Position numbers and translations under genes: made by a program. Below are positions 6,619-13,113 of a stretch of 64,000 nt of DNA, piece after piece (position 1 is the first letter of the stretch; each line of letters begins with the position of its first letter). The DNA lies in assembly GCA_937906475.1 (NCBI GenBank), contig CALCZA010000047.1, forward strand, positions 1 through 64,000, given 5' to 3'. The notes beneath the pieces were generated by a model, which was not told the origin of the DNA, did not search any database, and worked only from the letters and a program-made list of their open reading frames with translations. The stretch comes from an uncultured bacterium. Its GTDB lineage: Bacteria; Planctomycetota; UBA1135; UBA2386.

Positions 6619-7209
6619 TCACATCTGTAGCACGGCCTTGACGATCGTCTCGGTGTCGCCGTCGATACCCTGCTGCTTGCGGGCCTTGTCGACCTTGTTG
6701 CGAGCGTCGCTTTCCTTGAAGCCAAGGGTGACCAGTGCCGCGATTGCATCGTCATCGTCGGCGGTGATCGAAGCGGTGCCACCAGCAGCGGTCGGCATGC
6801 CCAGGTCGAGTTTGGTGACGACTTCGCGAAGTTCGAGGCAAATGCGTTCGGCGGTTTTTTGGCCGACGCCTTTGACGGCCTTGAGCGCCGCGTCGTCATC
6901 GGCGGAGATGCGCTTCGCCAGGTCGGCGGGGGTGTAGACGCTCAGCAACGCGAGCGCGATCGCCGGGCCAACATTGGTGACGGCAAGTAGTCGCCGCGCC
7001 AATTCCCGTTCCGGCTGGGTTGAGAAGCCGAGCAGTGACGGCATCCCGTCGACCACGTTCAGGATCGTGAATAGCTTCTGCGTCGTGCCAACCTTGAGAC
7101 CGGTGGCCGAGTTTAGGCTGATGCGCACGTCGTAGCCGACACCGGCGCAGCGGACCACGATACGCGATGCGTGCTTCTCGACGATTTCCCCTAGTAGGTG
7201 GTCGTACAT
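6619..7209 (-). CDS. ruvA: RuvA, Holliday junction branch-migration subunit
   Basis: RuvA tetramers bind four-way junctions and load the RuvB motor. 196 residues, standard length. N-terminal OB-fold (1-65, beginning MYDHLLGEI), central tandem helix-hairpin-helix domain (about 70-145, with VGPAIALALL and KGVGQKTAERI), acidic linker with DDDD, and C-terminal domain III (150-196) that contacts RuvB. ruvB and ruvC are not visible nearby, so the operon is split. It lies 170 bp downstream of the TPR/alpha-CTD gene, with a tandem repeat between them. Confidence 0.97.
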   Translation of the reverse strand: MYDHLLGEIVEKHASRIVVRCAGVGYDVRISLNSATGLKVGTTQKLFTILNVVDGMPSLLGFSTQPERELARRLLAVTNVGPAIALALLSVYTPADLAKRISADDDAALKAVKGVGQKTAERICLELREVVTKLDLGMPTAAGGTASITADDDDAIAALVTLGFKESDARNKVDKARKQQGIDGDTETIVKAVLQM

Positions 7210-7379: not shown

Positions 7380-8696
7380 CTAGCCGCGCAGCGAGAGTCC
7401 GAACTCGTCGAGCTTCGTCTTGATCTCGTTGAGCGAGGTCTGGCCGAAGTTCGGGCACCCGAGCAGCTCGGCTTCTGTCTTGGATGACAGGTCGCCAATG
7501 CAGCGCAGCTTGAGCAGGTCGACGATACGACGGCTACGAACCGACAGGTCGAGTTCGGCGATCGGGCGACGTGCCGGATCGGGGCTGTTCGGATCGGCGC
7601 TCTCTTCGACTGCGACCGGTGCTTCAGATGCTTCGCCAAGATCGCGATGCATCAGTTCGTCATTCGTCATGCCGAGGCGGAGACCCTTGTTCTTCAAGAT
7701 CTCCTTTATTTCGGTCAACGAGGTCTCTCCGAAGTTCTTGTAGCTGAGCAGCTCAGCTTCGGTCTTCTTGACGAGGTCGCCGAGCGTGCGAATGTTCATC
7801 TTCGCAAGGCAGTTGCGCGAACGAACCGACAGCTCGAAGTCGTTGATGGGGGTGCGTAGGAGCTTGTTGCGCTTGTCGTCGCGACGCTCCTGGTCCTCAT
7901 CGTAGTACATGTTGAGGGCGGCTGCCGCATCACGACGGAACATGCGCGCACGCGCGTTGTCCGGGTGGGCGTGCAGTGCCAAGTCGAAACACTGCATGGC
8001 GCGACGGTAGTTGCCCATGTCCTCATAGAGGATGCCGAGGTTCACCACGCAAGCGATGTTGACCGGCGGGTGCATCAGCGCGCGCTCGTAGAGCTCGCGG
8101 GCTTCTTCGTCTTCGCCGCGCAGGTCGACGTTGAGTGCGAGGCGGAACAGCGCCTGCTTGTGGTTCTCGTCTTGCGCGAGCACTTCGTCGTAGGCTTCGA
8201 TCGAGCCATCGACATCGCGTTGCAGTTCGAGCACGCGACCACGGAAGTACGCTTGGTCGGCCGGGCCGAGCAAGTGGCTGAGCTTGCCGACGGCGTCGGT
8301 GAGCTCTGCGGAGTTTCCGGTGTCGAGCGCGCGTAACCAGGTCAGTGCCTGGGTTGCATCGCTCTCGCGGTTGGGCAGCTTGGACTTGGCCTTGTCGACC
8401 TGACCGAGCGCCGCGTAGCTTTCAGCGAGGCACAGGCTCGCGACCTCACCAGCATCTGCAGCGAGCAGTGGCGCGGCGTCTTCATGACGGCCGAGCGCCC
8501 ACATGGCAATGCCGCGCGCGGTGCCTTGGGCCCGCGGGTCGAACAGCCATTCGCGCAGTTGCTGGAAGGAATCTACTGTCTTGAATGCTGCACTCTTAAA
8601 AGAGGCGAGCCTATCGGGCGTAACATCGCCTTCTAGAAAGACACTAGGGTCGAGCGAAGGTTGCGGTTCGTTCGGGACCAGATCCGTTTCCGTCAT
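7380..8696 (-). CDS. TPR protein with two RNA polymerase alpha C-terminal-like domains
   Basis: 438 residues. Residues 40-260 are TPR-like helices (clearest at 145-260, with AYDEVLAQDENHKQAL and GNYRRAMQCFDLAL). Two RNAP alpha-CTD modules follow, at about 279-343 and 378-436. Each has the FELSVRS or LDLSVRS start, the IGDL/LGDL loop, KTEAELL and the NFG-TSL-EI helix-hairpin-helix. Module 1 keeps the E. coli DNA-contact residues R265, N268 and C269 as R292, N295 and C296. Module 2 keeps only the Arg (R387) and has R390 and I391 instead. There is no alpha N-terminal domain, so this is not the rpoA product. A role in binding DNA or in competing for alpha-CTD contacts is inference; similar fusions occur in planctomycetes as far as I recall. 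Confidence 0.9.
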   Translation of the reverse strand: MTETDLVPNEPQPSLDPSVFLEGDVTPDRLASFKSAAFKTVDSFQQLREWLFDPRAQGTARGIAMWALGRHEDAAPLLAADAGEVASLCLAESYAALGQVDKAKSKLPNRESDATQALTWLRALDTGNSAELTDAVGKLSHLLGPADQAYFRGRVLELQRDVDGSIEAYDEVLAQDENHKQALFRLALNVDLRGEDEEARELYERALMHPPVNIACVVNLGILYEDMGNYRRAMQCFDLALHAHPDNARARMFRRDAAAALNMYYDEDQERRDDKRNKLLRTPINDFELSVRSRNCLAKMNIRTLGDLVKKTEAELLSYKNFGETSLTEIKEILKNKGLRLGMTNDELMHRDLGEASEAPVAVEESADPNSPDPARRPIAELDLSVRSRRIVDLLKLRCIGDLSSKTEAELLGCPNFGQTSLNEIKTKLDEFGLSLRG

Positions 8697-10831: not shown

Positions 10832-10851
10832 GCCGGGCCTACTGGCCCGGC
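10832..10851 (-). terminator. Perfect 8-bp hairpin overlapping the STAS gene stop
   Basis: GCCGGGCC and GGCCCGGC pair perfectly around the 4-nt loop TACT. The TAG stop (10839-10841) spans the base of the loop. This is a strong GC hairpin at the end of the gene without a clear U-tract. Confidence 0.45.
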
Positions 10852-11606
10852 AGTTGCGTCTTCAAAAACGCCATGTCGTTCGCGAACTGCCCAAGGGCTT
10901 CGCGATCGCCGTCACTGATCTTGGAATACTTTGCGGTGACGCGCACGGTGTCGTTGTCGCCGGCTGGCTCGACGCCGCTACCGGTCGCGGTGATCTCGAA
11001 GAAGCTCTTCTTGATCATCTTGACCTGGAACTTCATGTTCATCTCGCCGCCATCGAAGAACAGGGCTTTGGCCTGATCGGCGTTGAAGCCGGCTTTTGAG
11101 CCGTTCCAGAGGAACTGCATCTTGTTGCCGTCAACGTTGGCAATCTTGCCAACTAGCACCATCTTCTTCTTGCTGCCCAGCATCTGGTTGCGGGTGTCAT
11201 CGGGGAACGTGACTAGCACCTTTTCCTGATCGACGGCCGCTTCGGCGGTTAGCTCCTTCTTGTTGAGGTGCTTGATCATCGCCTTGGTTGCTGCTGCTTC
11301 GTCGTCGTGCAGCACGACCAACTTATCGATGCCAACCTTGGTCATGACGTCGCGGACGAACGGCGAAGGTTGCGCGATCACCAAGTCGCCATCCTCGGCG
11401 CGGCAGCGCTTGTGGGCCTTGATCACGGCACCGAGGGCGGTCGAGTTGATGAACTTGACCAGGCGCATGTCGAGGATGAGGTGATTGACACCGCGGTCGA
11501 GCAAGTCCTCGACTTCGGTCATCAGCGCGGGGCAGTAGAACGTGTCGAACTCGCCCTTGAGGGTCAGGGTCGCGTAGTCGTCGTAAAGTGACTTGTCGAT
11601 CTTCAT
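10839..11606 (-). CDS. STAS-domain anti-sigma-factor-antagonist-like protein with C-terminal PilZ-like domain
   Basis: 255 residues. Residues 1-110 form a STAS domain of the SpoIIAA/RsbV type; FINSTALG puts Ser55 where the regulatory phosphoserine of SpoIIAA lies (after the LDM strand). Residues about 125-235 look like a beta-rich PilZ-like domain (VLVTFPDD, FFDGGEMNMKFQVKM), but I do not see a clear RxxxR plus DxSxxG c-di-GMP motif, so nucleotide binding is uncertain. It is divergent from a GAF-SpoIIE phosphatase, which would be its natural activator. A cognate anti-sigma kinase is not in the window. Confidence 0.85.
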   Translation of the reverse strand: MKIDKSLYDDYATLTLKGEFDTFYCPALMTEVEDLLDRGVNHLILDMRLVKFINSTALGAVIKAHKRCRAEDGDLVIAQPSPFVRDVMTKVGIDKLVVLHDDEAAATKAMIKHLNKKELTAEAAVDQEKVLVTFPDDTRNQMLGSKKKMVLVGKIANVDGNKMQFLWNGSKAGFNADQAKALFFDGGEMNMKFQVKMIKKSFFEITATGSGVEPAGDNDTVRVTAKYSKISDGDREALGQFANDMAFLKTQLPGQ

Positions 11607-11763
11607 GGCATCAGGTGGACTGTTGAGAGATTCCAGTCCTTAAGGGGTACCTGGATTCTGTCGGTTCGGGGGCCTCGGCGCAACGTGACTCATGGCATTC
11701 CGTGTCCCAAGGTCGCCATGGTATGGCGCGGCGCGCTGCTTGCTTCTAGAGTTCCGGTGGCAG

Positions 11764-13113
11764 ATGAAATGGCCTTGGCAAAAGACTCCTGAATCCGCAC
11801 CACCTCCGGTGGCGCGCCAGCCAGTTAAGGATGCGATGTCCGCTTCGACGATCCTCACCGGGGACGCGATGCAGGATTCGCGCTCCCTGGAGATCCTTTT
11901 GGACACGATAGCGGCCGTTACGGCCAATATCGATCTGGACAGCGTGCTGCGTGACATCGTCGACCGTTCACTGCAGGTGACCAACGCCGAGCGGGCAATT
12001 CTGCTGCTGGGCGATGATCCAGACCACTTGACGGTGCGAATTGCTCAGGACAAGGAGCGCCAGACGCTGTCAGGCGAACTCCAGTGGAGTCGCAGCCTGG
12101 TGCGGCGCTGCCTGGAAGAGCATGTAGCTGTTCGTTCCGTGGTGCAGTCTGATCAGGAAGCGCTCGAACTCGGGCGTTCCGTATACGACCTCAAGCTGCG
12201 GGCGGTGATGTGTGCGCCGATGCGATCCAAGGGCCGTACGGTTGGAGTGATCTACGTTGACTCGCGGGCGGTGCGTCGCGAGTTCTCCGCGCGTGACTTG
12301 GCGTTGTTTGGCGCCATCTCGGCTCAGTTGGCCATCTCGGTGGAGAACGCACGCCTGCACGCTGACTCGCTCGAGAAGGTGAAACTGCAGAAGGACGTCG
12401 AGATCGCCCGCCGCATCCAGCAACACCTGTTGCCTACTGTGCCGCGCGATTGGGGTGGGTTTGAAATCGGCATCCGCTACGAAGCGGCGGAGCAAGCCTC
12501 GGGCGACACCTATGATTGCGTCGAAATGCCGGACGGTCGCTATGCGATCATGATCGGCGACGTAACCGGCCACGGGATCGGAGCGGCCTTGCTGACCCAC
12601 GCCGTGCAAGCCGCGCTGCGCAGCTACCTCGAACTGATCGATGATGCCGCGACGGTCATCACCAAGGTCAACCAGCGACTCGTCGACAGTGTCGAGACCG
12701 GCAACTTCATGTCGCTGCTGTTGATCATCCTCGATCCAAAGAAGGGCACGCTCGAATACGTCAACGCTGGCCATCCAGGCTTGGTGGTCTGCCAGCAGAA
12801 TGGCATCCAGGTGCTGGAAAAGACCGGCATGGTGCTCGGAGTCGTGGGCGATCAGGTCTACGAAGCGAGCCCAACGGTCAAACTCGAGCCTGGCGACGTC
12901 CTGTTCTTGCACACCGATGGCGTGGATGAGGCGATGTCGCCGGACCGCGCGGTCTTCGGCGTCGAGCGGTTGCAGCAACTCGTGGGCAAGCAGCGTCGTA
13001 CGGGCGCCGCTGCCAACGATATCCTGGTTGAAGTCGAGCGGCAGATCCGAAATCACGTCGGTAGCGATCTGCTTGAGGACGATTTCACGATGATCGCCGT
13101 CAAACTGACGTGA
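11764..13113 (+). CDS. GAF-domain PP2C/SpoIIE serine phosphatase (RsbU-like)
   Basis: 449 residues from the ATG at 11764; an upstream ATG at 11692 would add 24 residues that do not look like family sequence. The GAF sensor domain spans about residues 50-200, a coiled linker (KVKLQKDVEIARRIQQHLLP) leads into the SpoIIE-type PP2C domain at about 225-449. Metal-binding motifs are visible: ASGDTYD, GDVTGHGIGAAL and LHTDGVDEAM, and the terminal EDDFTMIAVKL. The predicted job is to dephosphorylate a STAS antagonist, very likely the divergent neighbour. The stop overlaps the next gene's GTG, so the two are translationally coupled. Confidence 0.93.
   Translation: MKWPWQKTPESAPPPVARQPVKDAMSASTILTGDAMQDSRSLEILLDTIAAVTANIDLDSVLRDIVDRSLQVTNAERAILLLGDDPDHLTVRIAQDKERQTLSGELQWSRSLVRRCLEEHVAVRSVVQSDQEALELGRSVYDLKLRAVMCAPMRSKGRTVGVIYVDSRAVRREFSARDLALFGAISAQLAISVENARLHADSLEKVKLQKDVEIARRIQQHLLPTVPRDWGGFEIGIRYEAAEQASGDTYDCVEMPDGRYAIMIGDVTGHGIGAALLTHAVQAALRSYLELIDDAATVITKVNQRLVDSVETGNFMSLLLIILDPKKGTLEYVNAGHPGLVVCQQNGIQVLEKTGMVLGVVGDQVYEASPTVKLEPGDVLFLHTDGVDEAMSPDRAVFGVERLQQLVGKQRRTGAAANDILVEVERQIRNHVGSDLLEDDFTMIAVKLT

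What the first reader, a model, noticed from the sequence alone, without database searches (positions are those of the whole stretch)
7380..8696. TPR protein carrying two alpha-CTD-like domains without an alpha N-terminal domain
Seen: two complete alpha-CTD modules after a TPR scaffold; the first keeps the DNA-contact Arg, Asn and Cys, the second only the Arg. Established: alpha-CTD binds UP elements and activators as part of rpoA. Inference: the protein may bind UP-like DNA or activators independently of RNA polymerase, acting as a decoy or bridging factor, with the second module specialised for protein contact.
Basis: partly seen in the sequence, partly recalled or inferred. Interest (0 to 1): 0.7.

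Follow-up and report, generated by a model that had tools for sequence, protein, structure and literature searches.

The report
Planctomycete TPR protein with two alpha-CTDs
Almost every planctomycete carries one copy of an unstudied protein in which a TPR scaffold is joined to two copies of the DNA- and activator-binding domain of RNA polymerase's alpha subunit; its first copy is as well conserved as the polymerase's own, which suggests a core but uncharacterised DNA-binding transcription or genome-maintenance factor.

Summary
The 438-aa ORF at 7380-8696(-) has TPR repeats followed by two bona fide RNA polymerase alpha-CTD domains (PF03118, 85 and 57 bits against a cut-off of 23.8) and no alpha-NTD; the genome has a separate rpoA. 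It is not a local oddity: orthologues occur, usually once per genome, in 282 of 294 sampled genomes of the phylum (Planctomycetota, by names of relatives). CTD1 and CTD2 are each one clade across the phylum and together separate from all rpoA CTDs sampled: one ancient capture plus a tandem duplication. The gene heads a likely ancestral operon (TPR-CTD-ruvA-ruvB-queH-spoIID-tgt-yajC-secD), intact in one complete genome; ruvA adjoins it in 57 of 76 loci. Most likely a cytoplasmic DNA-binding adaptor that uses CTD1 as RNAP does, partner held by the TPRs (inference). A recombination role with RuvAB is a serious rival. No description found in the papers searched.

The parts
7380..8696 (-). whole gene: TPR-alphaCTD-alphaCTD protein, 438 aa (protein 1-438)
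8277..8696 (-). N-terminal helical/TPR-like part, residues 1-140; least conserved domain (19% mean pairwise identity), absent in some orthologues
7911..8261 (-). conserved TPR core, residues 146-262
7848..7910 (-). conserved charged hinge helix, residues 263-283 (MYYDEDQERRDDKRNKLLRTP)
7668..7847 (-). alpha-CTD module 1, residues 284-343; R292, N295, C296, N321, G323, S326, E329 = E. coli R265, N268, C269, N294, G296, S299, E302; E324 = K297
7569..7667 (-). variable flexible linker, residues 344-376
7383..7568 (-). alpha-CTD module 2, residues 377-438; R387 = R265, R390 = N268, I391 = C269, N416, G418, S421, E424 kept
6619..7209 (-). ruvA, downstream on the same strand; conserved neighbour in the phylum

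Best explanation
A vertically inherited core protein of Planctomycetota, made by one ancient capture of an RNA polymerase alpha-CTD behind a TPR scaffold and an early tandem duplication of that domain (supported by the tree). It has no signal peptide or membrane segment that I could see by eye, so it is presumably cytoplasmic. CTD1 most likely binds the minor groove of A/T-rich DNA through its helix-hairpin-helix face, as the polymerase's alpha-CTD does, without being part of RNA polymerase. The TPR domain holds a protein partner, and CTD2 adds a second, divergent nucleic-acid or protein contact across a flexible linker. It would thus recruit a partner to, or shape, promoter or nucleoid DNA. 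The DNA-binding and recruitment steps are inferred, not shown.
For: Two PF03118 domains above cut-off. Predicted fold: best match is C. crescentus alpha-CTD bound to AT-rich DNA, 0.7 A rmsd, 54% identity. In 77 orthologues CTD1 keeps the equivalents of R265 76/77, N268 73, C269 72, N294 75, G296 77, S299 74, E302 77/77; R265 and N268 are key DNA-binding residues in E. coli (PMC11434276). CTD1 mean pairwise identity 0.67, against 0.61 for 31 rpoA CTDs of the phylum. Present in 282/294 genomes. CTD1 and CTD2 are separate orthologous clades (support 98/80 and 99/92), jointly separated from all rpoA CTDs sampled (100/95).
Against: Signature changes of CTD1 relative to the phylum's rpoA CTD lie on or beside the DNA face: K297 to E/D in 74/77 (rpoA K 28/31) and K291 to S/A, only partly offset by R at 267 and K at 272. 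So the surface may have been retuned for another ligand. Gene context is ruvAB and tgt/Sec, not transcription. No binding or expression data exist here. The Tn-seq paper on P. limnophila gives no per-gene result for it in its main text.
Confidence: 0.45

Rival explanations
1. Alpha-CTD mimic for protein contact: the modules contact sigma region 4, NusA or alpha-CTD-dependent activators, so that the TPR protein competes with or bridges to RNA polymerase rather than binding DNA itself.
For: The D259 and E261 equivalents (sigma-facing determinant, from general knowledge) are kept in CTD1 (D286 73/77, E288 69/77) and the TE.EL turn of the 287 determinant is kept; the K297E charge reversal weakens the case for unchanged DNA affinity; alpha-CTD is known to contact Crp and other activators (PMC11434276).
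Against: All other DNA-contact residues are under strong constraint too, which a purely protein-binding role would not require.
Confidence: 0.25
2. Recombination/repair accessory protein: an HhH DNA binder that works with RuvA-RuvB at Holliday junctions or other DNA structures.
For: ruvA adjoins on the same strand in 57 of 76 full-length loci, across many families and including divergent ones; TPR-CTD heads a ruvA-ruvB-queH-spoIID-tgt-yajC-secD run in a complete genome; ruvC is unlinked in the genomes where I compared places.
Against: The ruvAB-tgt-yajC-secDF run is itself a widespread bacterial gene order (general knowledge), so adjacency may be inherited rather than functional; in the Phycisphaerae type the gene stays with spoIID-tgt-secDF without ruvA next to it; the domain is alpha-CTD, not a repair HhH.
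Confidence: 0.17
3. The alpha-CTD modules serve as structural adaptors with no DNA or RNAP role, for example in the translation/export processes of the linked tgt-yajC-secDF genes.
For: Linkage with tgt, yajC and secDF.
Against: The nucleic-acid face is among the most conserved parts of the protein.
Confidence: 0.1

Closest known systems
C-terminal domain of RNA polymerase alpha subunit (RpoA; E. coli R265/N268 domain)
   Same: Fold (0.7-0.9 A rmsd), 52-55% identity for CTD1, most DNA-contact residues
   Different: No alpha-NTD, so it cannot assemble into RNAP as alpha; fused to TPR; two copies in one chain; K297E signature in CTD1, N268R/K in CTD2
PglW of BREX (alpha-CTD-like stretch inside a kinase)
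   Same: Alpha-CTD-like segment outside rpoA; P0001 matches that segment (E 4.5e-7)
   Different: No kinase domain, not in a defence locus, core gene of a phylum
Alpha-CTD x3 / sigma-70 region 4 / HARE-HTH proteins seen in a few planctomycetes (L236, L237, L245)
   Same: Several alpha-CTDs in one non-RpoA chain
   Different: TPR instead of sigma region 4 and winged helices; near-universal instead of sporadic
Small stand-alone alpha-CTD proteins (L238, L241, L244, L246; compare NCBIfam PRK07758)
   Same: Alpha-CTD without NTD; also carry E at the K297 position (NFGEKTL)
   Different: Single domain, no TPR, sporadic

Membership tests
RNA polymerase alpha subunit (RpoA) | alpha N-terminal domain for dimerisation and assembly | tested here: not met
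   No alpha-NTD family in the Pfam scan; rpoA equivalog models far below cut-off; separate rpoA on contig C127
RNA polymerase alpha subunit (RpoA) | groups with rpoA CTDs in a tree | tested here: not met
   CTD1+CTD2 separate from all rpoA CTDs, including E. coli, Azospirillum, Streptomyces and an Enterococcus-type one, support 100/95
RNA_pol_A_CTD domain (PF03118) | score above curated cut-off | tested here: met
   85.3 and 57.1 bits vs 23.8
RNA_pol_A_CTD domain (PF03118) | alpha-CTD fold | tested here: met
   Foldseek best hits are all RNAP alpha-CTD, 0.7-0.9 A over 66-67 columns; these alignments cover one module, evidently CTD1; CTD2 rests on sequence and its predicted helices
RNA_pol_A_CTD domain (PF03118) | DNA-contact residues of E. 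coli alpha-CTD | tested here: met
   CTD1 meets all but K298 (Thr, as in the phylum's own rpoA) across 77 orthologues; CTD2 lacks N268 and mostly C269
RNA_pol_A_CTD domain (PF03118) | binds A/T-rich UP-element DNA | not testable with these tools
   needs EMSA or footprinting
TPR proteins | TPR repeats above cut-off and TPR superhelix | tested here: met
   TPR_2 E 2e-14; Foldseek to designed and natural TPR proteins
RuvABC accessory proteins | genetic linkage to ruvA/ruvB | tested here: met
   57 of 76 loci with ruvA adjoining; ruvB nearby in L260 and L253
RuvABC accessory proteins | physical or genetic interaction with RuvAB | not testable with these tools
   needs co-purification or epistasis
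PglW (BREX) | full-length kinase model match | tested here: not met
   Only the alpha-CTD segment matches, 26 bits

The most novel reading that the evidence does not exclude
Planctomycetota possess a phylum-wide detached set of alpha-CTDs: a TPR-borne factor that occupies UP-like elements or the alpha-CTD-binding faces of sigma and activators at many promoters and so sets basal transcription, a general factor with no counterpart known to me in other bacteria.
Probability: 0.25. Interest if true: 0.85.

Novelty: new variant of a known kind. Interest (0 to 1): 0.6.

Why it matters
Alpha-CTD is usually regarded as a part of RNA polymerase. Here a whole bacterial phylum with unusual cell biology has kept a second pair on a separate TPR protein since before its radiation, and has guarded the DNA face of the first copy at least as strictly as the polymerase's own. 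If it binds DNA or activators, models of promoter recognition in Planctomycetota lack a core component; if it works with RuvAB, a phylum-wide recombination accessory has been overlooked. Either way it is a tractable single-copy target.

Tried and rejected
(1) Chance HhH resemblance: rejected. (2) Phage or plasmid decoy: tblastn of the two-CTD part against 50,697 phage and 72,556 plasmid records found no place covering 80% of the query; listed hits are rpoA where annotated, otherwise unannotated stretches matching mainly one CTD; PHROGs gave nothing informative. (3) TPR-CTD as a replacement for a missing ruvC: rejected for most of the phylum, ruvC is present in 92 of 98 genomes. (5) Essentiality: per-gene Tn-seq data of P. 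limnophila are in supplements that could not be opened. (6) Promoter scan upstream of the gene found no sigma-70-like site; upstream DNA in the family is not A/T-rich. (7) Viral fold search: TPR look-alikes and one weak phage alpha-CTD hit. (8) Literature searches found no description of the architecture.

Full report
OBSERVATION. The window holds a 438-codon ORF at 7380-8696 on the minus strand. Pfam assigns TPR repeats and two RNA_pol_A_CTD domains; in a six-frame search of the whole genome the two modules score 85.3 and 57.1 bits against a cut-off of 23.8, and the only third hit is the genome's rpoA on another contig. No alpha-NTD is present, and the rpoA models of NCBIfam match only through their C-terminal part, far below cut-off. 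Against a congener dN is 0.071 and dS 0.586, so the reading frame is under selection.

FOLD. AlphaFold2 on 45 orthologues gives mean pLDDT 90 with a continuous alpha-helical (TPR) solenoid, a hinge helix, CTD1, a disordered linker and CTD2; pTM is only 0.62, so the relative placement of domains is not known. The whole model matches TPR structures. The C-terminal 176 residues match RNAP alpha-CTD structures, best a Caulobacter alpha-CTD bound to A/T-rich DNA (0.7 A over 67 columns, 54% identity) and E. coli alpha-CTD (52-53%). These alignments cover one module, evidently CTD1 from the identity; CTD2 rests on its Pfam score and matching helices.

DISTRIBUTION. Orthologues exist in 40 of 41 close relatives (the exception, G002, is 85% complete and gave only an rpoA-like match), and in 282 of 294 genomes sampled evenly from the phylum, 201 of 210 genera, including all 155 genomes at least 90% complete. 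A few of these matches are fragments or rpoA only (e.g. G070, G092), so 'nearly all' is the right wording. Most genomes have exactly three PF03118 hits, that is rpoA plus this protein. Eighty named records from a scan of 84,980 species are Planctomycetota, apart from a few titled just 'bacterium'; this identifies the phylum but does not prove absence elsewhere.

EVOLUTION OF THE MODULES. In a tree of 85 CTDs, CTD1 (98/80) and CTD2 (99/92) are each one group, and together are separated from all rpoA CTDs, including those of E. coli, Azospirillum, Streptomyces and an Enterococcus-type record, by a branch with support 100/95. With 62 columns the deeper order is uncertain, but one capture followed by an early tandem duplication is the simplest reading. 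Some lineages have lost or degraded CTD2 (L112, L115, L260).

RESIDUES. Over 77 orthologues CTD1 keeps the equivalents of E. coli R265 (76), N268 (73), C269 (72), N294 (75), G296 (77), S299 (74) and E302 (77), and of D259 (73) and E261 (69). K298 is Thr, but so it is in the phylum's own rpoA (28 of 31). What sets CTD1 apart is E or D at position 297 (74 of 77) where rpoA has Lys (28 of 31), with R at 267, K at 272, S at 291 and Y at 292. CTD2 keeps R265 (75/76), N294, G296 (72), S299 (69) and E302 (75), has R or K at 268 (64/76) and a mixed 269. Mean pairwise identity among 49 non-redundant orthologues is 0.19 for the N-terminal part, 0.37 for the TPR core, 0.43 for the hinge, 0.67 for CTD1, 0.14 for the linker and 0.45 for CTD2; for 31 rpoA CTDs of the phylum it is 0.61 (the two genome samples differ, so read this as 'at least as conserved').

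CONTEXT. In the window ruvA follows 170 bp downstream on the same strand. ruvA adjoins the gene on the same strand in 57 of 76 full-length loci, spoIID in 7 and neither in 12, with at most 1.5 kb searched (counted by hand from its output, duplicates left out). In Phycisphaerae-type genomes the order is TPR-CTD, spoIID, tgt, yajC, secDF. One complete genome (L260) carries TPR-CTD, ruvA, ruvB, queH, spoIID, tgt, yajC, secD in one run with short gaps, apart from about 240 bp before ruvA. That joins both arrangements and makes it the likely ancestral operon. ruvC is present in 92 of 98 genomes and lies elsewhere in the genome in the window's own assembly and in that of L260. The linkage shows vertical inheritance and probable co-transcription; since ruvAB-tgt-yajC-secDF runs are widespread in bacteria (general knowledge), it is only moderate evidence for a shared function with RuvAB.

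MECHANISM. Shown: architecture, fold by prediction, orthology, selection on the DNA face, conserved gene run. Inferred: CTD1 binds A/T-rich minor grooves or the usual alpha-CTD partners; the TPRs hold a partner; CTD2 adds a divergent contact. I rate DNA-binding adaptor 0.45, alpha-CTD mimic for protein contacts 0.25, RuvAB accessory 0.17, structural adaptor 0.10.

NOVELTY. Domain databases already recognise both parts, and alpha-CTD outside RpoA is not new as such (PglW, small stand-alone proteins and others). A phylum-wide, single-copy TPR-alphaCTD-alphaCTD protein with its own near-invariant signature was not described in the papers I could search; many subscription papers are not held, and automatic annotation of such proteins surely exists.

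Noticed in passing
L236:2093-4558, L237:3-2459, L245:328-2904, L240:1538-3640: 700-860 aa frames in a few planctomycete genomes with two or three N-terminal alpha-CTDs, a sigma-70 region 4 and HARE-HTH winged helices: a possible promoter-recognition chimera.
   Followed up: partly
L238:402-740, L241:507-833, L244:436-900, L246:647-1057: Small 109-155 aa frames with a single alpha-CTD and an NFGEKTL-like motif, i.e. the same E at the K297 position as CTD1 of the TPR protein (the motif in L244 is NFGEKTL too).
   Followed up: partly
L243:328-1758: YhcG/DUF1016 PD-(D/E)XK nuclease with a C-terminal alpha-CTD.
   Followed up: no
L239:1985-6253: PglW of a BREX system with an alpha-CTD-like stretch at residues 821-873.
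   Followed up: no
L260:1-8089: Apparently intact ancestral gene run TPR-CTD, ruvA, ruvB, queH, spoIID, tgt, yajC, secD in a complete genome.
   Followed up: yes
family f17 genomes (G049, G079, G098, G163, G290) and G044: No RuvC found by PF02075 although most other genomes of the phylum have it; five of the six negatives are in one family.
   Followed up: no
window 10839-11606 (-) and 11692-13113 (+): STAS-domain protein divergent from a GAF-SpoIIE phosphatase: a likely partner-switching regulatory pair.
   Followed up: no
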